Assembly: GCF_033568475.1 (NCBI RefSeq)
Contig: NC_133121.1
Coordinates: 132,650,375-132,714,374 of the forward strand
From: Henckelia pumila
Taxonomy: Eukaryota > Streptophyta > Magnoliopsida > Lamiales > Gesneriaceae
Length of the DNA stretch: 64,000 nt
Direction: 5' to 3'
Shown here: positions 7,630 through 51,556 of the stretch, piece by piece
Layout: every line of letters starts with the position of its first letter
Numbering within the stretch: position 1 is the stretch's first letter
Position numbers and translations under genes: made by a program
Notes under the pieces: generated by a model
Databases searched by the model: none
The model's input: the letters and a program-made list of their open reading frames with translations, nothing else
What the model was told of the DNA's origin: nothing

Positions 7630-10600
7630 ATGCCCGTGTCGACAAGATCACAGAATTCGGGCAGCCAATCACAGAATGATCGGAATAAAGGGAAAGAAAG
7701 CAGAGAACCCAAGAAAGAAGAAGCCCAGAAGATGGTTATAAACCCGCACCATGGCCTCAAAGAAAAGATGAAAGCGTTGACGCTTTTGTACGAGCAGCAG
7801 AAACGGGGCCGCAACGAGCCTCGTTTTTTTACGCACCCGAGTGTCGACCTCATCGGTTCTTCCAAGAGAGATGAGAAAGAGAACAAAATTGTGAAGCCCA
7901 ATTCGGGAAATGTGATGAGGGAGCACGCATTTAGTGCTCATTTACCGTTGAAGTTGCCGCCACGCTCAGCTATTGATGATTTTAAGGAGGCAAAAAGGTC
8001 GAGTGCAGTGGTGAGGAAACTCTCGATGGGGCCTAATGTGGAGTTAAGAGAAGCTAAGAAGGAAAATGCCCAAGAAATTGGGAATCTTGCTGAGAAAACG
8101 AGAGCCGGGGCGAGCCGAATTCTTGTGTTTGTGAGGTTGAGGCCTATGGCGAAGAAGGAAAAGGAAGCTGGATCAAAGTGTTGTGTGAGAATTGTGAATA
8201 AGAGAGATGTTTATTTGACGGAATTCTCGAATGAGAATGACTATCTTAGGCTAAACAGAGTCCGTGGACGACACTTCACATTTGATGCTGCCTTTCCAGA
8301 GTCTACTAACCAACAGGAAGTTTACTGTACAACGTGAGTTCTTATAAAAAAGATAATCTCTTCTATAATCCATTTCATTATCTTTTCATAAGATGCCGTG
8401 AGAAAGCAAAATTAGTTTCAAGTATCCTTGTTCGTGTTTCGAAATGAACTACAGTTAATTATCATGGTCAGAAGCTGCTTGATTTCATTTATTTTGGTGC
8501 TATTGTTTGTCAGAAACTGAATTAAATGCAGAGTAGCTGCTAATCAATTTTTTTTTCCCTAACAGGGACATAAGAGAATGGCCTTTTATGATGTTTTGTG
8601 ATATTATTGTGATTTTTTCAAGGAAATAAATGTTTCCATTTTGAGCTTAAACACGGACTTTATTAAATTCTTGATATGCATTATTAACAATCAATTTTCC
8701 TGTTCCTATTCCTCCTCTTGATATTCATTGGTTTTCTCCAATTATAAAGCACATCTGGATTCTGGTCCATCTTTGTCTTCATGAAACATGACTTTACAAG
8801 AATGGTGACTTGGAGTCCTTGTGTTTGTTTCATGAACTTGTTGGAAATTTTAGGAACATTGTTATTTGTTTTATTAGGGGAAAATAAGAAATGCATATGA
8901 TTCCAGTTAAACACGGACTTTATTTAATTATGAATTGCATCAATTTTTTTGTTCCTTTTTACTGAATGAGAATCCTACACATTTTTCTTCTAATCGCTTC
9001 CAACTCTAATCTGTCCGAAAAACTCATTTCTTCGGTCAGATGGCATGAGAATACTCCGAGGTTACTTTCACTTTTAATTGGTTATTGAGAGACTTTTGGT
9101 TAATTAGCGATCTCAGCCTCCTATGATAATCCTGGTGTACTATTGTTTGCTTATGTTATGTAAAGAATTTCCTTTAGTTGTATGACCAGAAGAACCGAAG
9201 AAATCATGCAAGTTTGAAATGCTTTTTGGTAACTACAATGTAGCTCCGATCTCCAGGGGCGTGGTGTCCTCTTCCTCATAACGGCTTCATGTTAATGGCT
9301 CTTTGATCCTAGACTTAATGTTTGCCACTCATCATTTATCTCCTAGATGGATACCTACATTGAATCAAATGATTGTTTGCTATTATAATTCCTGGTCTTG
9401 GATATTTGTTTTCATTATAGGCATTCCATGGACAAAAATGTTTTACCTTAGTATAATGTTAATTTTTCAGAACAGAAGAACTCGTTGAAGCTGTTTTGCA
9501 GGGAAGAAACGGCTCGGTCTTCTGTTATGGTGCCACAGGAGCAGGAAAGACTTATACAATGCTTGGTACGGTTGAGAATCCAGGGGTGATGGTTTTAGCT
9601 ATTAAGGATCTCTTCAACAAAATAAGACAAAGGAGTTTTGATGGGAATCATGAAGTCAATCTATCTTACCTCGAGGTCTATAATGAAACTGTAAGGGATT
9701 TACTGTCCCCCGGAAGGCCTCTAGTTCTCAGAGAAGATAAGCAGGTACGATTTTTGAAAATATGAAAAATTACTTCTTTATACTTGCCATGATAGTTAAT
9801 TCCTTCCCATATTCATATTCTGGCTCCAATGGACTCTCTGCTTCTAGATATTGGTCATTGTTTACAAACAATGGAAAGTGTATCCGGAACAGGATTCTGG
9901 TTACAGGTGGGAAATGGGAATCAGTTATAAAAGTATAGTGGCCAAAAATACATCATTATCCTTAAATGTATGTAAAAATCATATTACTATCAAATTTCCT
10001 TATTGACCAACTATAGTGCAAAATTTTTCAGGGTATTGTGGCAGCAGGTCTTACTCAATACAGGGCATTTTCCACTGATGAAGTAATCATGTTCTCATTT
10101 CACTTGATTCGTTATCAACTAAAGGCTTCTGTTCACCAAAAAAATCATGGAATTCGTATTGAACTTTTTATTTCCTAAAAAAAATAACAAATACAGGTAA
10201 TGGCATTACTTCAGCAAGGGAATTTAAATCGTACAACAGAACCAACTCGTGCAAATGAAACTTCTTCCAGATCACATGCAATTCTGCAGGTGATTCTGAT
10301 CCTTACCTTTTGCAGAGTTTGATAATAAAAATTGCTTATTAATATTGCTTTTATATGCTATACAACTTCAGGTCATTGTTGAATATCGAACAAAAGATGC
10401 TCTAAACAATGTTGTCAACCGAATAGGAAAGCTTTCACTTATTGATCTAGCAGGTTCAGAGAGAGCTCTTGCTACTGATCAGAGAACTCTTAGATCTCTC
10501 GAGGGTGCCAATATTAATAAATCACTTCTTGCCTTAAGCAGTTGCATTAATGCTCTGGTCGAGGGTAAAAAACACATCCCATATCGTAATTCGAAGCTCA

Positions 10601-11927
10601 CTCAACTGTTGAAGGACTCCCTGGGTGGATCTTGTAATACAGTGATGATTGCAAATATTGGTCCAAGTAGCTTTTCATTTGGGGAAACACAAAACACACT
10701 TCACTGGGCGGATCGAGCCAAAGAGATCCGTTTAAAGGTCAGCATACAACATTAAGCTTCTCGCATGTGCTTTACAAATCCCCCCTCCCCCTATTAAAAT
10801 AAAAAGGAAAAAGAAAAAAGACAAGAAGGAAAATAATATACTCTCTTCAAATTCATAAACTGTGTTTGCATTATTATAAATTTATATGTGAGCTTGTGAT
10901 TCCTATTTTTCTTCTCCTCCGATTCTTTCATTTTTGTCCCTTTTCCTTCTGTCTTGATTCTTCATCAATTTAATGTCTACACGAATTTCTCCAGCCACAA
11001 CACCTAGCACCAAGTAAAGCCACTTTTCAAAACACTTACAATAGCTAATTTGTTATTTGGTTGCAGGCATCTGAAGTAAATGAGGACATGCAAATACCAG
11101 ATTTCGAAACAGATCAAGCCAAGTTGTTACTTGAGTTACAGAAAGAAAACAGAGAATTGCGACTGGAGTTGGCTCGTCAACAACAAAAGTTGCTAACTAT
11201 CCAAGCACAAAACTTGGCCTTAAATTCCTCACCCACCCCTTCCACGGTCTCTTCTCTCATATCCCCGGTTCCATCCTCGTGTCAGCCAAACGAAAAACGA
11301 AAACCAAGATCATTTTTCTTGGAAAGAAACTGCTTCACACCTGAATCAAAGAAAAAGGTCGGGACTGAATCTGTCAGAGACCTTTCAAAAACTGTTAAGG
11401 CGTTGGAGGCAGAAATAGAGAGGATGAAGAAGGATCATGCATTGCAAATAAAACAGAAGGATGGTTATATTAACGAGCTTTCACAAAAGGTTGAAGCACT
11501 AAGCCGAGTAGGTGGTGGCGAAGGGGTGGCAAGGGTCATCACCCGATCAAGATTGAACCCGAAGGAACCAAATAAGGGCGACTCTAAATGCCCTTCTCAT
11601 CGCTTCCTGTCTCCTGCGCCGACTGCTAAAAAACGAACCTTTTGGGACATAACTGCAGCTAATAGCCCTTCTGTCGCTACATTAACTGGACGAAAGACTC
11701 GAAGCCATTATGTTGCTGGTGTTGCACCCCCTTCTATGCTTCTACAGGTACTCCATGATCAAGAATTTCATTCCTCAAGTCATTGCTCTTTTTTTTCATC
11801 CTCAAATCTTGAATAGATTTTTAAGTGTTAAACTATGTCTTTCGTTTTTTTCTGGTTCCTCATGTGATCCATGACAACTTTTTAGCCTGGTTTTTCTCGC
11901 CAAATGACCGAAACATTGAAGCGTTAA
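7630..11927 (+). CDS. KIN8A: Kinesin-8 motor protein (KIN-8A type)
   Basis: Seven exons (7630-8333, 9471-9744, 10032-10082, 10197-10289, 10372-10737, 11067-11747, 11886-11927) give 736 residues with consistent phases. A basic, low-complexity N-terminal extension of about 160 residues starts MPVSTRSQ. The motor domain (about 163-500) follows: [11 protein letters not shown]-loop GATGAGKT at 255-262, switch I NETSSRSH, switch [10 protein letters not shown], then [16 protein letters not shown] and [11 protein letters not shown] short coiled-coil segment ([19 protein letters not shown]) and a basic Ser/Pro-rich tail end in [13 protein letters not shown]. Kinesin-8 proteins are plus-end motors acting on spindle or cytoplasmic microtubules; the motor sequence looks like plant KIN-8A. 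An in-frame ATG at 7510 would add 40 residues without family support, so 7630 was chosen. The last exon and 3' region are duplicated at about 14590-15060. Confidence 0.92.
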
Positions 11928-12399
11928 AGACAGACTACATCAGACAACAGACAACGGGGTTTGCTGCATTGGGTGGCACATTCTTTGCTTGCACCGTGAC
12001 AAAGTATTCGCCGAGTGGGACATTTCAGATGTTATATATGTCATGTAGAGGCTAAATGATGCTAAAGACATCATTTGAATTATTTTATTCTGTTCTAAAT
12101 GATCCTTTTTATCCTTGGTTTGTTTTGTTTTGATGTTTTTTTATATAGCAAATTGTTTTATGGTGTTCCTGAAATTTGTTGCAATTAAGCTTTACCGGCC
12201 CGCTGCATAATGCCCTAATCCTGTATCAAGATTCAAGCCCATCGAATTTTTTAGTACTTGTAAAAAAGAAAAGTTAGAAAGGGAAAAAAAATAAAAACTT
12301 ATTTTCTAGTTAAGAAGTCTCTTATTGTTTATTACGTAAAGTACATGAGACAGTACTTTATACACCCCATCAAGGTTTACTAAAATCATTCAGAATTAT
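11928..12399 (+). other. Kinesin 3' region and short spacer
   Basis: This holds the 3' untranslated region of the kinesin gene (its text is repeated at about 14707-15060) and an AT-rich spacer up to the MITE. No other feature was seen. Confidence 0.55.
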
Positions 12400-12571
12400 G
12401 AGTAACACTCCTGTGCAACGGTCTCATTCGTGAGACGGGTCAACCCTATCCATATTTATAATAATAAGTAATACTTTTGACATAAAATGTAATACTTTTT
12501 AATGGATAACCCATATAAGAGACCCGTCACACGAATATGACCCATGCAACGGTTGCATACAAGTGTTTGCC
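12400..12571. mobile_element. MITE, Mutator-like, 172 bp
   Basis: The insertion is flanked by a perfect 9-bp target duplication CAGAATTAT (12391-12399 and 12572-12580). Its ends are imperfect inverted repeats (GAGTAACACTCCTGTGCAAC against GGCAAACACTTGTATGCAAC), with inner mirrored blocks around GACGGGTC and TTATCCAT. A 9-bp duplication points to MULE-type transposition. The equivalent site in duplication copy 2 (near 15180-15200) lacks the insert, so it arrived after the duplication. The GTGAGACGG-like text resembles a MITE common in many dicots. Confidence 0.85.
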
Positions 12572-12699
12572 CAGAATTATATTCATACTTTCTAATTATT
12601 AACACAAAATACCTAAAAATACAAAGTGCAAGATAGTAATTGTTGTCAGATTATTAGAAACATATAAAAATCGCCAGATAGTAATGTTTGTCAGAAATA

Positions 12700-12712
12700 T
12701 TAAACTGATATG
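12700..12712 (-). terminator. snRNA 3'-end box of U5 copy 1
   Basis: Minus-strand CATATCAGTTTAA fits the plant snRNA 3'-end signal CA(N)3-10AGTNNAA, just downstream of the terminal stem-loop of the U5 gene. Confidence 0.75.
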
Positions 12713-12713
12713 T

Positions 12714-12839
12714 TAGGGTCTTCTAAAAAAAGAACCCTTCCAAAAAATAATGTATGCTGCTTGAATTGCAACGAACACACGGTATTCTTTAGTAAAAGGC
12801 GAAAGAATAGTTCGCTTTGTGTTCATTGCGCAGCTGCAT
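12714..12839 (-). ncRNA. U5: U5 spliceosomal snRNA, copy 1
   Basis: Read on the minus strand, this contains the near-invariant U5 loop 1, GCCTTTTACTA, at 12800-12790 inside a CGAACTATTCTTTCGCC...AAAGAATACCG hairpin. An outer stem pairs GCAATGAACAC with GTGTTCGTTGC. The Sm-binding site ATTTTTTGG (12748-12740) and a short terminal stem-loop (AGGGTTCT...AGAAGACCCT) follow. U5 aligns the two exons during both steps of splicing. The length of about 126 nt fits plant U5. A TATA-like ATAAATAA lies about 30 bp upstream and an upstream sequence element further on. Ends are estimated from promoter spacing and folding and may be off by a few bases. Confidence 0.9.
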
Positions 12840-12860
12840 AGCATTTCATGTTGCTTCAGT

Positions 12861-12924
12861 GCTTATTTATGCGGCAGAGCCGCAGAGGTGCCAAGCTTAG
12901 AACATTGATCATACGATGTGGGAT
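12861..12924 (-). promoter_or_regulatory. Pol II snRNA promoter of U5 copy 1 (USE + TATA, long spacing)
   Basis: The minus-strand upstream sequence element ATCCCACATCG (12924-12914) matches the plant consensus RTCCCACATCG exactly. The TATA-like ATAAATAA starts at 12870. The spacer is 43 bp, not the 33-34 bp expected for Pol II snRNA genes of dicots. A short direct repeat (CTCTGCGG / CTCTGCCG) within the spacer accounts for most of the extra 10 bp relative to copy 2. Confidence 0.8.
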
Positions 12925-13741
12925 CCTAGTTTTCCATCGGTTCAAAGTTCCCAACCCTTGGCTCGGTGAAGGAAAAAAAGAGGTGGTGACCCATCATTAA
13001 TGCCCGTATAATCGCGTTTCATTAAATAAAGAAATGTTCGTAGAACTTGATATATAATAATAAATTAATATTAAACAAATATGTCACACAATTCTATGGG
13101 GGCCATATTGGTTTATTTGGTAAAAGATGGTGTTTTATTAGTTGGTTTGCTTCGGTTAATTCATTTTGTTGTTTTTTTGGCTTTTGAGTTTAGAAATATA
13201 TTGTTTGATATCCGAAATGTTTTTCTCAGTTCGATTTGATATTCTTATCAAAGAGATTCGATTATTTCAGTTTTGTTTATTTGGTTTTAATAATTATTTA
13301 TATCGATAATAAAAACATTTTTTAAAATATCTTAAATTACTTTTTTAAATAATTTTTTGTTACTGAATTTTTTGATATAGTTTAAAATGAATTAAATAAA
13401 ATACAATCACCAAAAAAAATTAAAATGATTTTTAATTCAAAGAAATTCATCTCAATATATATATATCCAGGTAAAATTATTTCCGTTTTTTTTCGATTGA
13501 CATTCAATCTGAAACTGAAAATAACAAAAAAACATTTATTTCTGAAATTCGATTATTAAGTTTTCCATTTGAATTTCAACTTTTTTTCATTTCAACGTTT
13601 TTGCAACTATATATAATTCATCAATGATTAATTAGACAAATTTTAGGAAACCAATTTGGCCAAGTTCTTTAAATCTAGAACTGCCCCATGAACAAAATTT
13701 GACAATTTTATTTAATTTATTTAAAATTTAAAACTAAAATT

Positions 13742-13903
13742 GGCAGGGGCCGCGCGAACGCAGGCCCCCTCTATCACAAATTATGACGTAGGCTCGACCA
13801 CTTGGATCGACCTTAGGCAAGTGCCCCTCCTAAGTGCAATGGAGATCACTGTCCTAGGCCATGGGCCTTCTTGATCACCCATCAACCCCGTCCAGGTAAG
13901 TAT
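13742..13903 (-). ncRNA. U1: U1 spliceosomal snRNA
   Basis: The minus-strand RNA begins ATACTTACCTG, the canonical U1 5' end that pairs with 5' splice sites. It then shows the stem-loop I region GATCAAGAAGGCCCATGG, the stem-loop II/III region ATTGCACTTAGGAGGGG...CCAAGTGG, a GAGCCTACGTCATAATTTGTG stretch with the Sm site (about 13782-13775), and a strong GC-rich terminal hairpin GGGGGCCTGCGTTCGCGCGG closing at CCCC. The total of about 162 nt matches plant U1. TATA and an upstream element sit at Pol II snRNA spacing. No disruption of the main stems was noticed, so it is probably functional. It lies about 0.9 kb upstream of the U5 gene on the same strand. Confidence 0.95.
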
Positions 13904-13925
13904 GGAGCTTCAGCATTTTCCTTCA

Positions 13926-13978
13926 ATTTATATTACCATCAGTAATGTTTCCATCCAATTCCACGTTCAATGTGGGAT
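13926..13978 (-). promoter_or_regulatory. Pol II snRNA promoter of U1 (USE + TATA)
   Basis: The minus-strand element ATCCCACATTG (13978-13968) has one mismatch to RTCCCACATCG. The TATA-like ATATAAAT follows after 34 bp, and the U1 start lies about 30 bp further. The 34-bp spacing is that of Pol II snRNA genes rather than the about 24 bp of Pol III U6/U3. Confidence 0.85.
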
Positions 13979-14589
13979 TACGGATATCAAACAAACACTC
14001 CAACCATTCCTTCCACTCCTATTTTGCCAAAACAGAACTTAATTGGTCACACAAGACCCGTCACGGACTGGCTATTAGGCTTATATGACAGATATTGTCA
14101 TATTGATGGGTTCAACATCTATCTCTTGACGGCGAATAGATGGCGTCGGCCGAGGCCTTCGAAGAGTTATTTTCATAGATTTCGATGGACAAATCGATTA
14201 AAAAAAAGCCGATGAAAATTGAAGTAATTTTAATTCTAGTTTCTTGATATGTATCATATCTAAGTGGTATTCATGTGTGATTTGTGCATTTTGTTGCTAA
14301 TGCTAGAAAGCATACACACACTTTTTGACACTTGCATCTAAGCTATTTACTGTGATCAAACAAGAATTTAAAGGAGATTTACTACTGCATATATAACATA
14401 TGGAATCTAAGACGCACATTTTGCGTACCTAATTTCGGCTTGTTCTTAAGCTCTTTTTACGGGAATCAGAACACATTACATGAAAAGATGTCAGAAGATC
14501 AGTGAGCACGAATTAGTTCATGTAAATGAAATTAATACATCTATCATAAACTACGTCTTGAATGGATTTGTCATGGATCTAAGAGCACT

Positions 14590-15060
14590 TTTTTTTTCAT
14601 CCTCAAATCTTGAACTACGTCTATCGTTTTTTTCTGGTGCCTCATGTGATCCATGACAAATTTTTAGCCTGGTTTTTCTCGTCAAATGACCGAACATTGA
14701 AGCGTTAAAGACAGACTGCATCAAACAACGGGGTTTGCTGCATTGGGTGGCATATCCTTTGCTTGCACAGTGATAAAGTTTTTGCTGAGTGGGACATTTC
14801 AGATGTTTATATATGTCATGTAGAGGCTAAATGGTGCTAAAGACAACAATTGAATTATTTTATTATGTTCTGAACTATCCTTTTTATGTGCTTTAACTAA
14901 CAGTGTTCATTCATGTGAGAAAGAAGAGCTAACAGTTTTTATTAGTCCCCAAAACACTAGAGGCCTTGGGTTTTTTTTTTTTTTATATAGCAGATTGTTG
15001 ATGCTAAAATTTTCTTTTATGGTGTTCCTGAAATTTGTTGCAATAAAGTGTTATCGGCTC
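14590..15060 (+). pseudogene. Duplicated terminal exon and 3' region of the kinesin gene
   Basis: Nearly identical to 11795-12190: TTTTTAG|CCTGGTTTTTCTCG at 14661-14680 corresponds to the start of the last kinesin exon at 11886. One A is missing in the GAAACATTG stretch, so the last codons would differ. No motor exons accompany it and it has no promoter of its own, so it is a passenger of the tandem duplication and not a gene. Confidence 0.85.
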
Positions 15061-15303
15061 GCGCTAATCAAGCCCATCGTATTTTTAAGTACACATGCAA
15101 AAAAAAAGTTAAAAAGGAAAAATAAAAATAAAAAAAATAATGCCCTTATCGGCCATTACATCATCAAGGTTTACTAAAATCATTCAGATTTACATGCATA
15201 CTTTTTAAATAACATAAAATATATTAAAAGATTGTATCATATCATATTATAAGAGCTAAAAATATAAATTGACAGATATTAATTGTTCACGGATTAGAGA
15301 AAA

Positions 15304-15319
15304 TTTAACTGTTATGATG
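15304..15319 (-). terminator. snRNA 3'-end box of U5 copy 2
   Basis: Minus-strand CATCATAACAGTTAAA contains AGTTAAA preceded by CA at allowed spacing, fitting CA(N)3-10AGTNNAA, directly after the terminal hairpin. Confidence 0.7.
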
Positions 15320-15443
15320 GGTTTTCTATTAAGAAAAACCCTCCAAAAAATAATGTATGCTGCTTTAATTGCAACGAGCACACGGTATTCTTTAGTAAAA
15401 GGCGAAAGAATAGTTCGCTTTGAGCTCATTGCACAGCTGCAAT
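15317..15443 (-). ncRNA. U5: U5 spliceosomal snRNA, copy 2
   Basis: Paralogue of 12714-12839. It keeps loop 1 GCCTTTTACTA (15403-15393), the CGAACTATTCTTTCGCC hairpin, the Sm site ATTTTTTGG (15351-15343) and a terminal hairpin GGGTTTT...AAAACCC. The outer stem carries paired changes (GAGC with GCTC where copy 1 has GAAC with GTTC) plus one U-U mismatch, a pattern that suggests the RNA structure has been kept under selection. Its promoter has normal spacing, so of the two copies this is the better candidate for strong expression. Confidence 0.9.
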
Positions 15444-15467
15444 ACTTTTAACGTAGCTTCCGTGATC

Positions 15468-15517
15468 ATTTATGCGGCAGAGGCACCATCTTAGAATATG
15501 ATCTTCTGATGTGGGAT
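15468..15517 (-). promoter_or_regulatory. Pol II snRNA promoter of U5 copy 2 (USE + TATA)
   Basis: The minus-strand USE is ATCCCACATCA (15517-15507), one mismatch at the last base. The TATA-like ATAAATGA starts at 15473, after 33 bp. This is the regular Pol II snRNA spacing, in contrast to copy 1. Confidence 0.82.
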
Positions 15518-16214
15518 CATAGTTTCCCATTCTGTTCAAAATTCCCAACCCTTGGCTGGCTCGGTGAAGAAAAAAAGGTAGTGGCGTGGACTGTGGAATA
15601 ATATATTTTTAAAATCGAAAATCGAAAAAAATAAAATAAAATACCCAAAACTAAAGCCAAGCAACTAATAAACACCTCAAAAATCCAGTTCGATTTGATT
15701 TTCTATCCGGTTCCGTTATTTCAGCTCCATTTATTTGGTTTTAATAATTATTTATATCAATAACAAAAAAAAATATTTTTTAAAATATCTTAAATATCTG
15801 TTTTAGATAATTTTTGTTACTAAATTTTTAATATAATAATATAAAGTTTAAAATTAATTAAATCCTAAACACAATCACCAAAAAATTGAAAATGAATTTT
15901 AATTCACAAAAATCATCTGAAAATATATATCCAGATAAAATTATTTCCGTATATCCGATTTTGATTTTTAATCGGAAACTAATAAATACAAAAAAATTAA
16001 TTTTTTACATAATTTTTTTATGGAATAAAAATTGCAATTTATAGTACAATGTTTTATAAGCTTTCCATTCGAAATTGGTTTTTGAATTTTAACTAATGAT
16101 TACGGGCCCGTGAATGAATTTGACAAGGTTCTTCAGTCGACTTCTGACAAGTCTTTCACAAGCGAAAAAATTTGACAAAAAACAGAACTTAACTTGGCCG
16201 AGGATTCTCCTTCG

Positions 16215-16267
16215 ATTTATATTACCATCAGTAATGTTTCCATCCAATTCCACGTTCGATGTGGGAT
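16215..16267 (-). promoter_or_regulatory. Orphan U1-type snRNA promoter
   Basis: The minus-strand USE ATCCCACATCG (16267-16257) is a perfect match and ATATAAAT follows after 34 bp. The flanks match the copy-1 U1 promoter closely, but downstream there is no U1 sequence: about 160-180 bp spanning the RNA are absent. Any transcript would begin near 16185-16190 and would be unlike a known snRNA. Confidence 0.8.
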
Positions 16268-16627
16268 TTCGGATATCAGACAAACACTCCAACTATTCCT
16301 TCCACCTCTGTTTGCCAAAACAGAACTTAATTTGGCTTATAATAACAGATATCGATGGGTTCAAAGTGTATCTCTTGACTGCGAAAAATCGATGGCATCC
16401 GCCGAGGCCTCGAAGAGTTATTTTCATGGAATTCGATGAAAAAATCCGATAAAAACAGAAGAAAATTGTAGTAGTTTCGATAATTTCGGCTTGTTCTTAT
16501 GCTCTTAATTATACGAGAATCAGAACACATTAGTCATCACATGAAAAGACATGAGAAGATCAGTAAGCATGAATTAGTTCATGTAAGTGAAATTAATACA
16601 TCTAGCTTAAAAAAGAAGAAGCATCAA

Positions 16628-17625
16628 CTAGGTTCTGAGAAAGTAAACACTAAGTTCAGGAGCAGCCTTATTATCAGGATTGATCATATAGAATGCCTCA
16701 GAATTTGCAGTTCCCACAACTCTTTCGAATTTAGCCCTCATATATATCACTTCTTCTTTTTCTTTCCTTATAACACCAGCTCCCATAGATATCGGCTCCA
16801 CGGCCTTCAGTATCTTCCATTCCTTCTCCCCACATTCCACCCTCGTCGCGAACCCGAGCTTGTTCCCATTGCAATAAGTCCTCCACGCCGGCTCGTCTAA
16901 GAGACTAGCCTGACTCGTCCGGCCTCTGTTGTCACACTCGAAGGCAATGCGAACCAGCCCCGGCCCCATCTCTCGGACCAAACCTATCAAAAAAATCCAA
17001 GAATTTTTTTTAGTCAGTTTTTATAAACTCTCTAAAAATAAGTGATTATGGATATACACGAGATTTTGAACTACACTGACTAGTGTAGTTCAAGATTTTG
17101 AACAACTTGCACTCGAGTTGAGCTCGAGCTTTACTAAGGGAATATTTTAATAAATGACCAAGGTCGTTTTGCATATTATCCCGGCAAAACTAACAACAGG
17201 GTATGCATGGACGACATACCTGTTATCGGTGTTGCGAGTTCGACCAACAAAGTCGGGGCGGATTTGGAATCCTTCTGGAAAGCCAGATGCGCATTGCCAC
17301 GCTTGTTTCCGAAAAGGGTTCCAAGAACTAGCCGTCGCTGAAACTGCGATGATCGAATTCTGATGAAGGAATTCAGCACGGCTTGCAGCCTGGAAACAGA
17401 GACTGCGGCTAGTTTCTTTCTCCTCGAATGGCAAGATTTTGGTGCTTCTGCCTCTGTGAAATTGTTCTGATCGTACGGTTTCTTGGAGGAAGAGTGTTGC
17501 AAGATCTTTTGGGGTTCTTGGAGGAAAAAGGACACATTACTTGTATCATTTTTCTCTTCGATATTGCTGATCTTTGTTGTCCACTGGAAATGCTTCTTGT
17601 TGGATGTTTTGATCTTGTTGTTCAT
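16628..17625 (-). CDS. MIZU-KUSSEI1-like protein (DUF617)
   Basis: Two exons (17625-17220 and 16983-16628) joined in frame give 253 residues. The conserved DUF617 core runs from GTLFGNKRGNAHLAFQKD and LLVELATPITGL over the splice site into GLVRIAFECD, WRTYCNGNKLGFA, VEPISMGAGVI and the terminal EAFYMINPDNKAAPELSVYF. The first 75 residues are polar and unconserved. The family founder MIZ1 is needed for root hydrotropism in Arabidopsis and associates with the cytosolic face of the ER; other members are mostly uncharacterised. At 253 residues this is a normal-length member. The first in-frame ATG was chosen, but a shorter start further in cannot be excluded. Confidence 0.87.
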
Positions 17626-45365: not shown

Positions 45366-45783
45366 CATAATTATTTAATTATGATTATCATTATATGCAT
45401 TACATGATTATCACGAATTTTTATTCAACACATACTCAATTTTTTCTTTACTCCCAACGGTCACAAACGGTAACAAAACGGCTAGTTTTTGCCCTATAAA
45501 TATGTTCACTCAAACTCATTTTCAATCACACCAAATTCATTCTTTCTCTCAAAATATTTTATCCTCGATTTTTTCGAAGATGGAGATGATGACATTTATA
45601 AGGATATTTTTCATAACGACTATGATCATCATGCTCACGAGTCTTTTACTCACCAGCGATTTTCCAACACATATTTTTTCTCTATTTGTATACGCACTTG
45701 TAATTTACGTTCTTCCATTATTTTGTATTGTCATATTTATGGAAATTAACTAATAAAATGCATTGTTATTTTCTAGTACCACC

Positions 45784-46824
45784 ATGTCGAACTTGGCGAA
45801 ACTCGAATTCATTGCACTTGATATAACCGGAAAGAATTATATGCCATGGACCCTCGATGTAGAAATGCATCTCGAGTCATTGGGTCTTAACGAAACTATC
45901 AAAGAAAATAACATATCATCCTCACAAGATAAAGCAAAAGCGATGATATTTTTACGCAGACATCTTGATGAGGGGTTGAAATGTGAATATTTGACCGAAA
46001 AAGACCCAATGATTTTGTGGAAAGGGTTAAAAGAACGTTTTGAGCATATACGGGAAGTTATACTTCCGACCGCACGAGATGAATGGAATACTTTAAGATT
46101 CCAAGATTTTAAAAAGGTGAGTGATTATAATTCTGCGATGTATCGAATTGTCTCACAGCTGAAATTTTGTGGGCATAATATTACTGAGATGGAAATGCTT
46201 GAAAAGACATTTTCCACACTCCACGCATCAAATATAACTCTACAACAGCAATATAGAGTGCGTGGATTTTCAAGATACTCAGAACTCATCGCATGTTTAC
46301 TCGTGGCGGAAAAGAATAATGAATTGCTCATGAGAAATCATCAGTCCAGACCTACTGGTTCAACGGCATTTCCTGAAGCAAATGTCGTAAGTAAAAATGA
46401 AAACCAAAATCAAAGATATAGACAAGATTTTGGTCGAGGTCGTGGACGAGGACGTGGGCGTGGACGTGGGCGTAGAAATGATCGCGGTCGTGGTCGAGGC
46501 CGTGGATTTGAAAATAAAAGAGATAGTTATTTCAATAACTCATCTCAAAGGAACGTCACGAACCACCCACAAAAGAGGCAGCATGATAATACGGGTGAAA
46601 ATGAAAATCATCCAAAAAGAACTGAGAGTGTTTGTTATAGATGTGGCACTCCAGGACATTGGTCAAGAACTTGTCGAGCCCCTGAGCATCTGTGTAAGCT
46701 CTATAAAGATTCAATAAAGGGGAAAAAAAAAGAGACCAATTTTACTGAAAACATTGACCATACAAGTGGTTCAATGAATTTAGATGCTGCCTACTTTTTG
46801 AATGATTTCGAAGATATTGATTAA
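45784..46824 (+). CDS. Copia gag
   Basis: Nucleocapsid-type protein starting MSNLAKLEFIALDITGKNY. It has the UBN2-like gag core, an Arg/Gly-rich stretch (GRGRGRGRGRG) and a CCHC zinc knuckle CYRCGTPGHWSRTC. The ORF is open; the start was chosen at the conserved MSNL. Confidence 0.9.
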   Translation: MSNLAKLEFIALDITGKNYMPWTLDVEMHLESLGLNETIKENNISSSQDKAKAMIFLRRHLDEGLKCEYLTEKDPMILWKGLKERFEHIREVILPTARDEWNTLRFQDFKKVSDYNSAMYRIVSQLKFCGHNITEMEMLEKTFSTLHASNITLQQQYRVRGFSRYSELIACLLVAEKNNELLMRNHQSRPTGSTAFPEANVVSKNENQNQRYRQDFGRGRGRGRGRGRGRRNDRGRGRGRGFENKRDSYFNNSSQRNVTNHPQKRQHDNTGENENHPKRTESVCYRCGTPGHWSRTCRAPEHLCKLYKDSIKGKKKETNFTENIDHTSGSMNLDAAYFLNDFEDID

Positions 46825-46996: not shown

Positions 46997-48130
46997 TAGG
47001 GGTGGGCACGGGTCGGGTTTTTCGGGTTTCGGGTTATTCGGGTCGGGTACCCGATTAGTCGGGTAGTGTTTTACACTACCCGAAACCGAACCGAGATGGT
47101 CGGGTACCCGACTAGTCGGTTACCCGATTAAATCAGGTTCGGTTCGGTTTCGGTTTTTCGCTTCAAAAAAAATGAAAAAATAGATACAACCTACAGATTA
47201 ATGTAATAAGAAAGAAACTCAAATGTTATCAAAATATATTATTTTTCAATGTTCACAATAACAAACTAAACAAGAAAATAATAAAATGACACAACAGAAA
47301 TCAAAAGCATCAGTCTTTCTGTGAATAATTCATATTTGTTCAAATTCCTACAACAATATAGAGAGGCTTCTGATCTTCAATATCTTCCGATTCTTCCAAG
47401 ATACCTGCTGCCTGCAAACCAAATCAGTGGAAGATACCACACGAAGCTACTAATGTAATGAACAAATTCCCTCAAACGATTTGAAATTATCATGTTGGCC
47501 GAAAATATTTTTCAGATTACACAAATATCTATCAAATATATAAAGATTCTAACACTTGAGCACACTTACCCGTTACCAGAGCAAGAAGCAAGCCGATAGA
47601 AGCAGAGGAAAAATGAACTCGAACAGTCGAAGTCCAGAAAACTCTTCAAGCCGATCAAAGCTGAGGAAAGACGAACTCGAAATCGATTGCTTTGGCCTTT
47701 GATTAAACTTTAGAAGCTGAGGATAAAATAAAGAACTCAATTGCTTTGAATAATTGAATCGATGAGTGAACACTCTCAAGATCCCATGGAAGAACGAGGG
47801 CAGGCTGGCAGCGGCGGCTCTCTTGAAGAGAGTCTCTTCTCACTTCTGCTACTAGGTTACAGACACTCTCCAAAAATAATCGGATAATGGCCCAAATAAA
47901 ACCAAATAATAAAAGCCCATACCATTTTTATAAAAATATATATAAATAGTCGGGTACCCGATCGGGTAGTACGGGTAGTGTTAAACTACCCGAAACCGAA
48001 CCGACTAAATATATATCGGGTTCGGTTACTACCCGAACCCGACAAAAAACTCAAACTACCCGTTTTATCCACCCGATCGGTTTCGGGTCGGTTCGGGACC
48101 CGAAAAACCCGACCCGATTGCCCACCCCTA
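46997..48130. mobile_element. Non-autonomous hAT-type element nested in copia
   Basis: Inverted ends TAGGGGTGGGC and GCCCACCCCTA are flanked by a perfect 8-bp target duplication CCAGATAG (46989-46996, 48131-48138), diagnostic of hAT. Dense subterminal repeats of CGGGTACCCG, ACTACCCGAAACCGAACCG and TTCGGGT occur on both sides in mirror orientation. The centre (about 47190-47940) has no transposase domain. It is younger than its host copia element. Confidence 0.93.
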
Positions 48131-48138
48131 CCAGATAG

Positions 48139-51100
48139 TGGTACAACGCACACTATCCTCGGAAATGAAAAATATTTCTTGGAATTAAAACCAACAAAAA
48201 CAATGGTGAATACAATATCAGGTCCTGTAGACTTGATTGAAGGATGTGGCAAAGCACAATTTTTGTTACCTAATGGTACAAAATTTTTGATAAATAGTGC
48301 TTTATATTCACCACGATCACAAAGAAATTTGTTGAGTTTTAATGATATATATTCTCATGGTTATGATACGGAAACAATAACCGAAGGAAATGAGAAATAT
48401 ATGTGTCTTACTACATATAAATCAGGAAATAAATATGTAGTTGAGAAATTATCAATGCTCCCTACTGGATTGCATTATACACATATAAGTCCAATCGAAT
48501 CAAATATGGTTATTGGAAATTCTTCAATACTAACAAATTGGCATGATCGATTGGGACATCCTGGTTCAATAATGATGCGAAGGATTATAGAAAATACAAG
48601 TGGTCATCCACTGAAAGACCAGAAGATCTTTCAGAATAATAAGTTTCAGTGTAAGGCATGTTCTCTGGGGAAACTTATTATAAGACCATCACCAGCTAAA
48701 ATCCAAAAGGAATCACCCATATTTCTTGAACGTATTCAAGGTGATATTTGTGGGCCAATTCATCCACCATGTGGACCATTTCGATACTTTATGGTATTGA
48801 TCGATGCCTCTAGCAGATGGTCACATGTATGTTTATTGTCTACTCGGAATGTGGCATTTGCAAAATTGATGGCTCAAATAATAAAATTGCGGAATCAATT
48901 TCCCGAATATACGATCAAGAAAATAAGACTTGATAATGCTGGAGAATTTACTTCCCAGACTTTTAACGACTATTGTATGTCGATGGGAATTACTGTTGAA
49001 CATCCTGTAGCTCATGTTCATACACAAAATGGATTAGCTGAATCATTGATTAAACGTCTGCAGTTGATTGCTAGACCAATGATTATGAGAACGAAACTCC
49101 CTATTTCTATATGGGGACATGCAATTTTACATGCTGCTGCATTGATTCGCATCAGGCCAAGTGCATATCATAAACACTCCCCATTGCAGCTTGTATTTGG
49201 CAAAGAACCAGATATTTCTCATTTGAGAATTTTTGGATGTATGGTATATGTGCCTATTGCACCACCTCAAAGAACAAAAATGGGACCTCAAAGAAAGAAT
49301 GGTATTTATATCGGCTATGATAGTCCATCAATCATTAGATATCTTGAGGCTCAGACAGGCGATGTGTTTACAGCACGGTTAGCTGATTGTCATTTTGATG
49401 AAAATAACTTCCCAATGTTAGGGGGAGAAAAGAAACACATCGAAAAAGAAATCACATGGTATGTACCATCATTATTACATTTGGATCCTAGAACTAAACA
49501 ATGTGATAAAGATGTACAACAAATTGTGCATTTGCAAAGAATAGCAAATCAAATGCCAGATGCATTTGCAGACACAAAAGGGGTAACAAAATCATATATA
49601 CCTGCTGTAAATGCCCCTGCTCGAGTTAAAATTCCAAAGAAACAAAATGAAGACATTCATGATGTCATAAAACGCCTGAAGCGTGGAAGGCCAATCGGTT
49701 CAAAGGATAAAAATCTTCGGAAAAGAAAATACATAGAGAAAAATGATGATCAGAAAATAGAAAATGGTGTTCCAGAAGAAACACACGATGATGAAAATAT
49801 TTTGTCAGAACCACAAACTGACGAGAATCATGAAATCTCTATCAATTATATTAATACTAGAAAAATATGGAACCGAAAGAATGTACAAGATATTGATGAG
49901 ATATTTTCGTACAATGTGGCATGTGACATCGTAAATGAAGATAATGAACCAAAATATTTTGGTGAATGCAAAACTCGAAAGGATTGGTCAAAATGGAAAG
50001 ATGCCATCCAGGTTGAATTAAATTCGCTAAATAAACGTAGTGTTTTTGGACCTATAGTCCTTACACCTAAAGGTGTTAAACCTGTTGGGTACAAATGGGT
50101 TTTTATTCGAAAGAGAAATGAGAAAAATGAAATAGTGAGATATAAAGCTCGACTTGTTGCACAAGGTTTTTCTCAAAGACTTGAAATTGATTATGAAGAA
50201 ACATATTCTCCTGTTATGGATGCAATTACGTTTCGGTATTTGATCAGTTTAGCAGTGTCTGAAAACTTGGACATGCGTTTAATGGATGTTGTTACAGCTT
50301 ATTTATACGGATCACTTGATAGTGATATATACATGAAAATCCCTGAAGGATTTAAGATGCTAGAAGCACAAAGTTCAGAACCCAGAGAATTTTATTCTGT
50401 GAAATTACAAAGATCATTGTATGGGTTAAAGCAATCCGGCCGAATGTGGTATAATCGGCTAAGTGAACACTTGATGAAAAAGGGATATGTAAATGATCCA
50501 ATATGCCCTTGTGTTTTCATCAAGAAAACAACATCGGGATGCGTGATTATTGCTGTATATGTTGATGATTTAAACATCATTGGAACAAATAAAGAAATTC
50601 AAGAAGTGATGTTATACTTGAAGGAAGAATTTGAAATGAAAGACCTTGAAAAAACCAAGTATTGTCTTGGTTTACAAATTGAACAAAAAGAATGTGGAAT
50701 TTTTGTTCACCAGTCTAATTATACAGAGAAGGTCCTTAAACGTTTCAATATGGATCAATCAAATCCTTTAAGTACTCCAATGGTTGTCAGATCATTGAAT
50801 ATAGAAAAGGATCCATTTCGTCCATGTGAAGATGATGAAGTTGTTCTTGGTCCTGAAGTACCATATCTAAGTGTCATTGTTGCCCTTATGTATCTTGCAA
50901 ATTGCACTAGACCAGACATATCTTTTGCAGTAAATTTATTGGCAAGATTCAGTTCATGTCCAACGAAGAGGCACTGGAACGGAATTAAACATATATTCCG
51001 TTATTTACGAGGAACGACGGATTTGGGACTTTTGTATCCAAAAGATACAAATCAAAGAATAATTGGTTATGCTGATGCTGGATACTTATCTGATCCACAT

Positions 51101-51556
51101 AAGGCACGTTCCCAAACCGGATATGTATTTACTCGTGGAGGCACTGCAATCTCTTGGCGATCACAGAAACAAACACTTGTTACAACTTCATCAAATCATG
51201 CCGAGATTATTGCACTACATGAAGCAAGCCGTGAATGTGTCTGGCTTAAATCAATGACTCGGCATATCCAAACTTCTTGCGGATTATCAGTGGACAAGAA
51301 TCCAATCACACTGTATGAAGATAATGCCGCATGTGTTGCCCAAATGAAAGAAGGATACATCAAAAGTGACAGAACTAAACATATTCCTCCTAAATTCTTT
51401 GCATACACTCAAGAGCTGGAGAAGAATAAAGATATTGATATCTGTTACATTCAATCAAGTGAGAACTCATCCGATCTCTTCACAAAGGCACTTCCCACGG
51501 CGATATTCAGAAAACACATTTATAATATTGGGATGCGCAATCTACGAAATATGTGA
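48139..51556 (+). CDS. Copia pol region (integrase, reverse transcriptase, RNase H)
   Basis: In order: pre-integrase zinc region (HDRLGHPG...CKACSLGK), integrase core (GDICGPI...DNAGEFTS...VEHPVAHVHTQNGLAE), RVT_2 reverse transcriptase with YVDDLNIIG, and copia RNase H (GYADAGYLSD...AEIIALHEA). The long frame looks largely open. Coordinates cover only the part outside the nested hAT element. Confidence 0.9.

What the first reader, a model, noticed from the sequence alone, without database searches (positions are those of the whole stretch)
12700..13978. Complete U1 and U5 snRNA genes as a same-strand pair
Minus-strand sequence shows a U1 with the ATACTTACCTG 5' end, Sm site and terminal hairpin, and a U5 with loop 1 GCCTTTTACTA and Sm site. 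Each has a USE and TATA of the plant Pol II snRNA type. ORF-based annotation would miss both. I recall U1-U4 pairs in Arabidopsis; a U1-U5 pair would be a different linkage.
Basis: partly seen in the sequence, partly recalled or inferred. Interest (0 to 1): 0.75.

Follow-up and report, generated by a model that had tools for sequence, protein, structure and literature searches.

The report
Plant U1–U5 snRNA gene cluster
This stretch of a plant chromosome carries one U1 and two U5 splicing-RNA genes in a row on one strand, made by a tandem duplication that later lost one U1, and U1 next to U5 turns out to be a recurring arrangement in this genome although it is not the pairing reported for Arabidopsis.

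Summary
The locus is a tandem duplication of the intergenic stretch between a kinesin gene and a convergent DUF617 gene: unit 1 = 11789-14550, unit 2 = 14590-16611. Unit 2 keeps the U1 promoter (exact USE, TATA; 16201-16320) but the U1 RNA body is gone. Among 61 snRNA hits in the genome, all 8 pairs of different types within 20 kb are U1-U5, all same-strand; none is U1-U4, unlike Arabidopsis (seven U1-U4 clusters, one U2-U5; PMC545797 passages). Most likely all three are ordinary Pol II snRNA genes with separate promoters. Expression and synteny in other plants could not be tested. Passing find: Copia LTRs in this genome carry snRNA-type USE+TATA sequences.

The parts
13743..13903 (-). U1 snRNA gene (RNA body)
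   Evidence: Rfam RF00003, 148 bits, full length; compensatory changes against 6 other intact U1 genes of the genome
13968..13978 (-). USE of U1 (ATCCCACATTG, 1 mismatch to RTCCCACATCG)
13927..13932 (-). TATA box of U1 (TATAAA), 35 nt after the USE, at -29
13728..13742 (-). 3' box-like sequence of U1 (CAATTTTAGTTTTAA); close to but not an exact match to CA(N)3-10AGTNNAA
   Evidence: sequence (no match scored there); consensus from PMC5079582
12716..12835 (-). U5-B snRNA gene, the U5 of the finding; 5' end may be 12839
   Evidence: Rfam RF00020, 89.2 bits, full length; folds at z -4.40
12914..12924 (-). USE of U5-B (ATCCCACATCG, exact)
12866..12871 (-). TATA-like box of U5-B (CATAAA), 42 nt after the USE: about one helical turn further than in the other snRNA genes
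12700..12712 (-). 3' box of U5-B (CATATCAGTTTAA)
15319..15439 (-).
   Evidence: Rfam RF00020, 90.3 bits, full length
15507..15517 (-). USE of U5-A (ATCCCACATCA, 1 mismatch)
15469..15474 (-). TATA-like box of U5-A (CATAAA), 32 nt after the USE
15304..15316 (-). 3' box of U5-A (CATAACAGTTAAA, within the longer match scored)
16201..16320 (-). Orphan U1 promoter of unit 2: exact USE (16257-16267) and TATAAA (16216-16221) with a 35-nt gap, no U1 RNA body downstream
   Evidence: 89% identical without gaps to 13912-14031; alignment fails just before U1 +1; no U1 hit there down to E = 1 in a scan of 11500-17500; a genome search with 15997-16345 finds only itself and unit 1
11789..14550 (.). Tandem duplication unit 1: kinesin 3' end and 3' flank, U5-B, U1, DUF617-gene 3' flank
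14590..16611 (.). Tandem duplication unit 2: copy of kinesin 3' end, U5-A, U1 promoter without U1, DUF617-gene 3' flank

Best explanation
The region holds three separately transcribed Pol II snRNA genes of a plant: one U1 and two U5, all on the minus strand. Each has its own USE and TATA-like box, a full RNA body and a 3' box or near-box; each transcript would be capped, cleaved at the 3' box, bound by Sm proteins and used in the spliceosome (biogenesis inferred from known plant snRNA genes, not shown here). The layout arose when the intergenic stretch between a kinesin gene and a convergent DUF617 gene, already holding U1 followed by U5, was tandemly duplicated. Afterwards unit 2 lost the U1 RNA body, leaving its promoter as an orphan, and U5-B gained about 10 bp between USE and TATA. 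U1 and U5-A are probably active; U5-B may be weaker or altered. U1 upstream of U5 on the same strand is a recurring arrangement of this genome (C2, twice on C4, and a decayed copy on C3).
For: Full-length Rfam hits. USE-TATA spacing within the range of the genome's other snRNA genes for U1 (35) and U5-A (32); 3' boxes for both U5 genes, chance 1.8% per random 46-mer. The U1 body evolves as a structured RNA: across 7 intact U1 genes 94.9% of cells are paired and 7 pairs changed on both sides, against 2.8 in shuffles (0 of 500), with one such change (columns 56-82) private to this U1. Duplication: 7 collinear segments, 1633 columns, mean 79.2% identity. Orphan promoter. Recurrence: 8 of 8 heterotypic pairs within 20 kb are U1-U5 and same-strand; about 0.0003 same-strand pairs within 1.5 kb expected by chance. 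Separate promoters and gaps of 907 and 1415 nt argue for separate transcripts.
Against: No RNA data. U5 covariation is inconclusive (115 of 500 shuffles reach the number of two-sided pairs), and one of the five U1 measures is not raised (further pair types 24 against 25.0 in shuffles). Single-sequence folds are not decisive: U1 z is -1.03 (31 shuffles fold as well) and the minimum-energy fold of U5-A is not the U5 fold. The U1 USE has one mismatch and its 3' box is not an exact match. C2 and C4 clusters match only in the RNA bodies and a few adjoining bases, so one common origin of the U1-U5 linkage is not shown.
Confidence: 0.85

Rival explanations
1. The genes are decaying copies that are no longer expressed; other loci supply U1 and U5.
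For: Unit 2 has lost its U1 body; U5-B has an aberrant USE-TATA gap; other intact U1 and U5 genes exist; decayed copies occur elsewhere (for example C3:159.64 and C2:151.67).
Against: The window U1 is the best-scoring U1 hit of the genome (148 bits) with a private compensatory change; both U5 genes keep loop, Sm site, 3' hairpin and 3' box.
Confidence: 0.1
2. U1 and U5 are processed from one long precursor (dicistronic).
For: Same strand, U1 upstream of U5, and a C3 remnant with only 75 nt between them.
Against: Each of the three window genes has its own USE and TATA-like box, both U5 genes have a 3' box, and the gaps are 907 and 1415 nt; the C3 remnant is decayed and has no recognisable U5 promoter.
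Confidence: 0.03
3. The U1-U5 neighbourhoods on C2 and C4 arose independently; their likeness is a coincidence of local duplication rather than an old linked unit.
For: C2 and C4 clusters match only in the RNA bodies and a few adjoining bases; no DUF617 match or kinesin-tail match near C4:24 Mb; the U1 tree does not join window and C4 U1 genes with support.
Against: Same order (U1 then U5), same strand and similar gaps (718, 907, 1105 nt) on C2 and C4, with no other heterotypic linkage among the hits; old spacers would be expected to lose similarity.
Confidence: 0.4

Closest known systems
Arabidopsis U1-U4 and U2-U5 snRNA gene clusters (ASRG survey, PMC545797; passages read)
   Same: Different snRNA types close together, with USE/TATA promoters; in the seven U1-U4 clusters U1 is upstream, and the authors suggest multiplication by duplication.
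   Different: Here the partner of U1 is U5; U1-to-U5 gaps of the intact pairs are 0.7-1.1 kb instead of 180-300 nt; no U1-U4 or U2-U5 neighbours were found within 20 kb.
Plant Pol II snRNA genes with USE, TATA and 3' box (PMC9845283 and PMC5079582, passages)
   Same: USE and TATA about four helical turns apart; 3' box downstream; RNA families U1 and U5.
   Different: U5-B has about five turns (42 nt); the U1 USE and 3' box each deviate slightly.
U3-U5 linkage in Euglena gracilis (PMC2784804; title and abstract start only)
   Same: Recurring linkage of U5 with another small RNA gene.
   Different: Different partner and lineage.

Membership tests
U1 snRNA (RF00003) | Covariance-model score over the curated cut-off, full length | tested here: met
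   148 bits against 69.5, model 1-166
U1 snRNA (RF00003) | 5' splice-site-pairing end, U1 loops, Sm site, terminal hairpin | tested here: met
   ATACTTACCTG, GATCAAGAAG and CATTGCAC loops, AATTTGTG, terminal hairpin in the alignment (roles of the motifs recalled)
U1 snRNA (RF00003) | Compensatory changes in the stems | tested here: met
   7 two-sided pairs against 2.8 in shuffles, 0 of 500 as high, 7 of 13 hits used
U5 snRNA (RF00020) | Covariance-model score over the cut-off, full length, for both copies | tested here: met
   89.2 and 90.3 bits against 40, model 1-117
U5 snRNA (RF00020) | Compensatory changes in the stems | tested here: inconclusive
   4 two-sided pairs against 2.7 in shuffles, 115 of 500 as high, 8 of 11 hits used
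Plant Pol II snRNA promoter (U1, U5-A) | USE and TATA about four helical turns apart | tested here: met
   U1 35 nt, U5-A 32 nt
Plant Pol II snRNA promoter (U5-B) | USE and TATA about four helical turns apart | tested here: not met
   42 nt; 2 places in the genome have an exact USE with YATAAA at 37-43 nt, one of them U5-B
Plant snRNA 3' box CA(N)3-10AGTNNAA (U5-A, U5-B) | Exact match just downstream of the RNA | tested here: met
Plant snRNA 3' box CA(N)3-10AGTNNAA (U1) | Exact match just downstream of the RNA | tested here: not met
   Near match only; 0 of 13 U1 hits of the genome match in full
Arabidopsis-type U1-U4 cluster | U4 180-300 nt downstream of U1 | tested here: not met
   0 U1-U4 pairs within 20 kb among 13 U1 and 5 U4 hits; no U4 hit in the window
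Functional snRNA genes | Expression of capped, mature RNA from these copies | not testable with these tools
   No RNA data available

The most novel reading that the evidence does not exclude
In this plant lineage U1 followed by U5 is a standing two-gene unit that has taken the place of the U1-U4 clusters seen in Arabidopsis and is repeatedly duplicated as a unit, with later loss of single members; the orphan U1 promoter left at 16201-16320 may still fire and make an unrelated short Pol II RNA.
Probability: 0.15. Interest if true: 0.5.

Novelty: new variant of a known kind. Interest (0 to 1): 0.38.

Why it matters
ORF-based annotation misses these genes, and the nearest reported plant case pairs U1 with U4. 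A genome in which U1-U5 is the only heterotypic snRNA linkage found suggests that snRNA gene neighbourhoods are lineage-specific. The two units give a natural comparison: a U1 promoter with and without its RNA, and two sister U5 genes whose promoters differ by about one helical turn, which would test how strict the four-turn USE-TATA rule is in vivo.

Tried and rejected
Rejected: chance resemblance (covariance scores far above cut-offs); a U1-U4 or U2-U5 arrangement as in Arabidopsis (none within 20 kb; U2 counts may be low, see below); the C4 cluster as a duplicate of the whole neighbourhood (no DUF617 or kinesin-tail match there; no similarity beyond the RNA bodies and a few adjoining bases, plus strand only); a diverged U1 still present in unit 2 (no hit down to E = 1 in 11500-17500; U1 body against 16200-15997 scores 15, shuffled 95% level 19).

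Led nowhere or weak: resumption of homology downstream of the lost U1 is not significant (score 26, shuffled 95% level 27, maximum 34; with lenient scoring 59, 95% level 54, maximum 69). A 28-nt stretch at the break resembles the unit's own upstream sequence (score 39, best of 300 shuffles 37), a hint of filler DNA. Trees of U1 and U5 copies are poorly resolved: 0 of 8 and 2 of 7 inner branches starred; left out before the U1 tree: C2:151670124 and C2:182435759; before the U5 tree: C2:14354643. The U1 structure count used 7 of 13 hits and the U5 count 8 of 11, the better-preserved ones. No second USE/TATA pair that could be an orphan U1 promoter was found in the roughly 1.5 kb held upstream of the C4 U5 genes at 24.0127, 24.0337 and 24.0577. 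A permissive Rfam scan of 18 of the loci held gave no further U1 or U5 copies. The short-spacing search (exact USE, YATAAA at 20-26 nt) gave 6 places against 67 for its reversed control and says nothing. Literature: searches listed no plant paper on U1-U5 linkage by title or abstract start other than the Arabidopsis survey, but lists were capped (20 of 49, 15 of 498) and most older snRNA papers are not in the library. No plant genome other than the window's own is available, so synteny was not tested. The species was not identified. Part of the sequence downstream of two U2-type promoters reads N, so U2 copies may be undercounted.

Full report
What is there. All three match their models end to end. 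ARAGORN found no tRNA. A permissive scan of 11500-17500 adds only two weak matches far below their cut-offs.

Signals. U1 has USE ATCCCACATTG (13968-13978; one mismatch) and TATAAA (13927-13932), 35 nt apart. U5-A has USE ATCCCACATCA (15507-15517; one mismatch) and CATAAA (15469-15474), 32 nt apart. U5-B has an exact USE ATCCCACATCG (12914-12924) and CATAAA (12866-12871), 42 nt apart. The other U1, U5 and U4 hits with a recognisable USE have gaps of 31-36 nt, except the decayed U1 at C2:182435759 (18); the scan did not place the USE of the decayed U5 at C4:24033697. The alignment of the two units shows the extra bases of U5-B between USE and TATA. A genome-wide search for an exact USE with YATAAA at 37-43 nt finds 2 places, one of them U5-B (reversed control 1); an exact USE with TATAAA at 30-36 nt occurs 144 times (reversed control 1); an exact USE with YATAAA at 20-26 nt occurs 6 times, fewer than its reversed control (67). 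A review states that plant Pol II snRNA genes have USE and TATA four helical turns apart and U6 and U3 genes one turn fewer (PMC9845283, passages); U5-B would be at about five. Whether that works is not known to me.

Downstream, both U5 genes match the plant 3' box CA(N)3-10AGTNNAA (consensus from PMC5079582, passages) and U1 has a near match; 1.8% of random 46-mers of the window match in full. Among the 30 snRNA hits examined (13 U1, 11 U5, 5 U4, 1 of 10 U2), 4 match in full, all of them U5, so an exact match is not the rule in this genome.

Are the genes constrained? For 7 of the 13 U1 hits, the intact ones, the Rfam structure projected on the window gene gives 94.9% paired cells and 7 pairs with changes on both sides (shuffled mean 2.8; 0 of 500 as high); values fall when the partners are slid (at most 49.5% paired). 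One measure, further pair types, is not raised (24 against 25.0). One two-sided change (columns 56-82, C-G to U-A) is private to the window U1. For 8 of the 11 U5 hits the same count is inconclusive (115 of 500); one stem does not vary at all. Single-sequence folding is better than shuffles for U5-B (z -4.40) and U5-A (z -3.63, though its minimum-energy fold is not the U5 fold) and neutral for U1 (z -1.03).

How the locus arose. Self-comparison shows seven collinear segments of 11789-14550 repeated in 14590-16611, mean identity 79.2% over 1633 aligned columns. Unit 1 starts at what I infer to be the last codons of a kinesin gene (motor-domain frame at 10300-10755, Pfam PF00225; following frame 11049-11816 on the same strand, with no family match over its cut-off). 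Unit 2 ends in the 3' flank of a DUF617 gene on the opposite strand (PF04759, 16628-17020). The ancestral order, left to right, was therefore kinesin (rightward), U5, U1 and DUF617 (all leftward), and the intergenic stretch was duplicated in tandem. The U5 tree supports the two window U5 genes plus C3:67.81 as one group (98/96), with U5-A closest to the C3 copy (98/93).

The missing U1. Unit 2 matches the U1 promoter region of unit 1 (16201-16320 against 13912-14031, 89% without gaps), with an exact USE and TATAAA 35 nt apart. The alignment fails just before the U1 start; no U1-like sequence follows. A genome search with 15997-16345 finds only itself and unit 1. Loss of the RNA body after duplication is the simplest reading; what the orphan promoter now drives, if anything, is unknown.

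Genome context. The window lies on C2 of an 885-Mb genome in 133 contigs. Matches: 13 U1, 11 U5, 5 U4, 10 U2, 22 U6 (only the best candidates were scored, so counts can be low). Within 20 kb there are 8 pairs of different snRNA types, all U1-U5 and all same-strand. Four of them, with U1 upstream of U5, lie 75, 718, 907 and 1105 nt apart: a decayed pair on C3:159.64, C4:24.059, the window, and C4:24.566; a fifth is 16.9 kb apart on C4, and in the other three U5 is upstream. Random placement would give about 0.0003 same-strand pairs within 1.5 kb. C4:24.01-24.06 Mb holds four U5 and two U1 hits on one strand. C2 and C4 clusters match only in the RNA bodies and a few adjoining bases, so one old linked unit and independent origins both stay open. 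The U1 of the C3:159.64 remnant pairs with the window U1 (91/86, not starred) and keeps similarity to the TATA region upstream of it, which favours a DNA-level copy over a reverse-transcribed RNA.

Comparison with the literature. The Arabidopsis survey reports seven U1-U4 clusters (U1 upstream, 180-300 nt), one U2-U5 cluster, and a tandem duplication each of U2 and U5 (PMC545797, passages). U1-U5 is not among them. Seven searches listed no other plant report of U1-U5 linkage by title or abstract start, but some lists were capped and the library lacks most older papers. I file this as ordinary genes in a linkage that differs from the reported one.

A passing result that may deserve its own look. 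The 144 exact USE+TATAAA matches include several snRNA genes, but of the 30 fetched (the first listed, all on C1) 28 match the LTRs of a Copia-type retrotransposon (two reference LTRs of 407 and 445 nt, themselves among the 28; one of the 28 matches over 224 nt only), and 2 do not, these lying upstream of U2 hits. In the 8 element pairs compared, the two USE-bearing repeats are 94-96% identical over 408-453 aligned columns. A purine tract precedes 13 of the 30 and a primer-site-like sequence follows 10 others, as expected of 3' and 5' LTRs; 5 LTR copies show neither. The neighbouring frames of two copies match RVT_2 over its cut-off. So an LTR in this genome has the USE, TATA and spacing of a Pol II snRNA gene. 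Whether the rest of the 144 are LTRs was judged only by eye from the listing. That such motifs sit in plant LTRs may be familiar to specialists; (15 of 28 and 20 of 2,005 papers listed) showed no title or abstract start that describes it, and I did not read those papers for it.

Limits. No RNA data, no other plant genome, no species name. Expression, start sites and the age of the linkage are inferred or open.

Noticed in passing
Genome G000, for example L058/L059, L064/L063, L067/L068, L075/L076 (C1): Copia-type LTR retrotransposons whose LTRs carry an exact snRNA-type USE and TATAAA 30-36 nt apart; 144 exact matches genome-wide against 1 for the reversed control, and 28 of the 30 fetched (all on C1) are LTRs.
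   Followed up: partly
window 12866-12924: U5-B has about 10 extra bp between USE and TATA (tandem-looking CTCTGCGG/CTCTGCCG), giving about five helical turns; 1 of only 2 places in the genome with an exact USE and YATAAA at 37-43 nt.
   Followed up: partly
window 13129-13465, related stretch 15686-15996: A dispersed repeat lies between U5-B and U1; one search lists at least 28 other places at 72-75% identity. A collinear counterpart lies in unit 2, so it probably predates the duplication.
   Followed up: no
window 16634-16981 and 17218-17328: The DUF617 gene next to the cluster matches its profile in two separate pieces (intron or damage), whereas the 8 other DUF617 matches of the genome are in one frame.
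   Followed up: no
window 45757-46824 and 47900-51556: Two long frames that look like the gag and pol parts of a Copia retrotransposon (judged by eye from the translations; no family scan run).
   Followed up: no
L019 (C3:159637594-159640705), 1275-1612: Decayed U1 and U5 only 75 nt apart, related to the window cluster; the U1 keeps its TATA region, the U5 has no recognisable promoter.
   Followed up: partly
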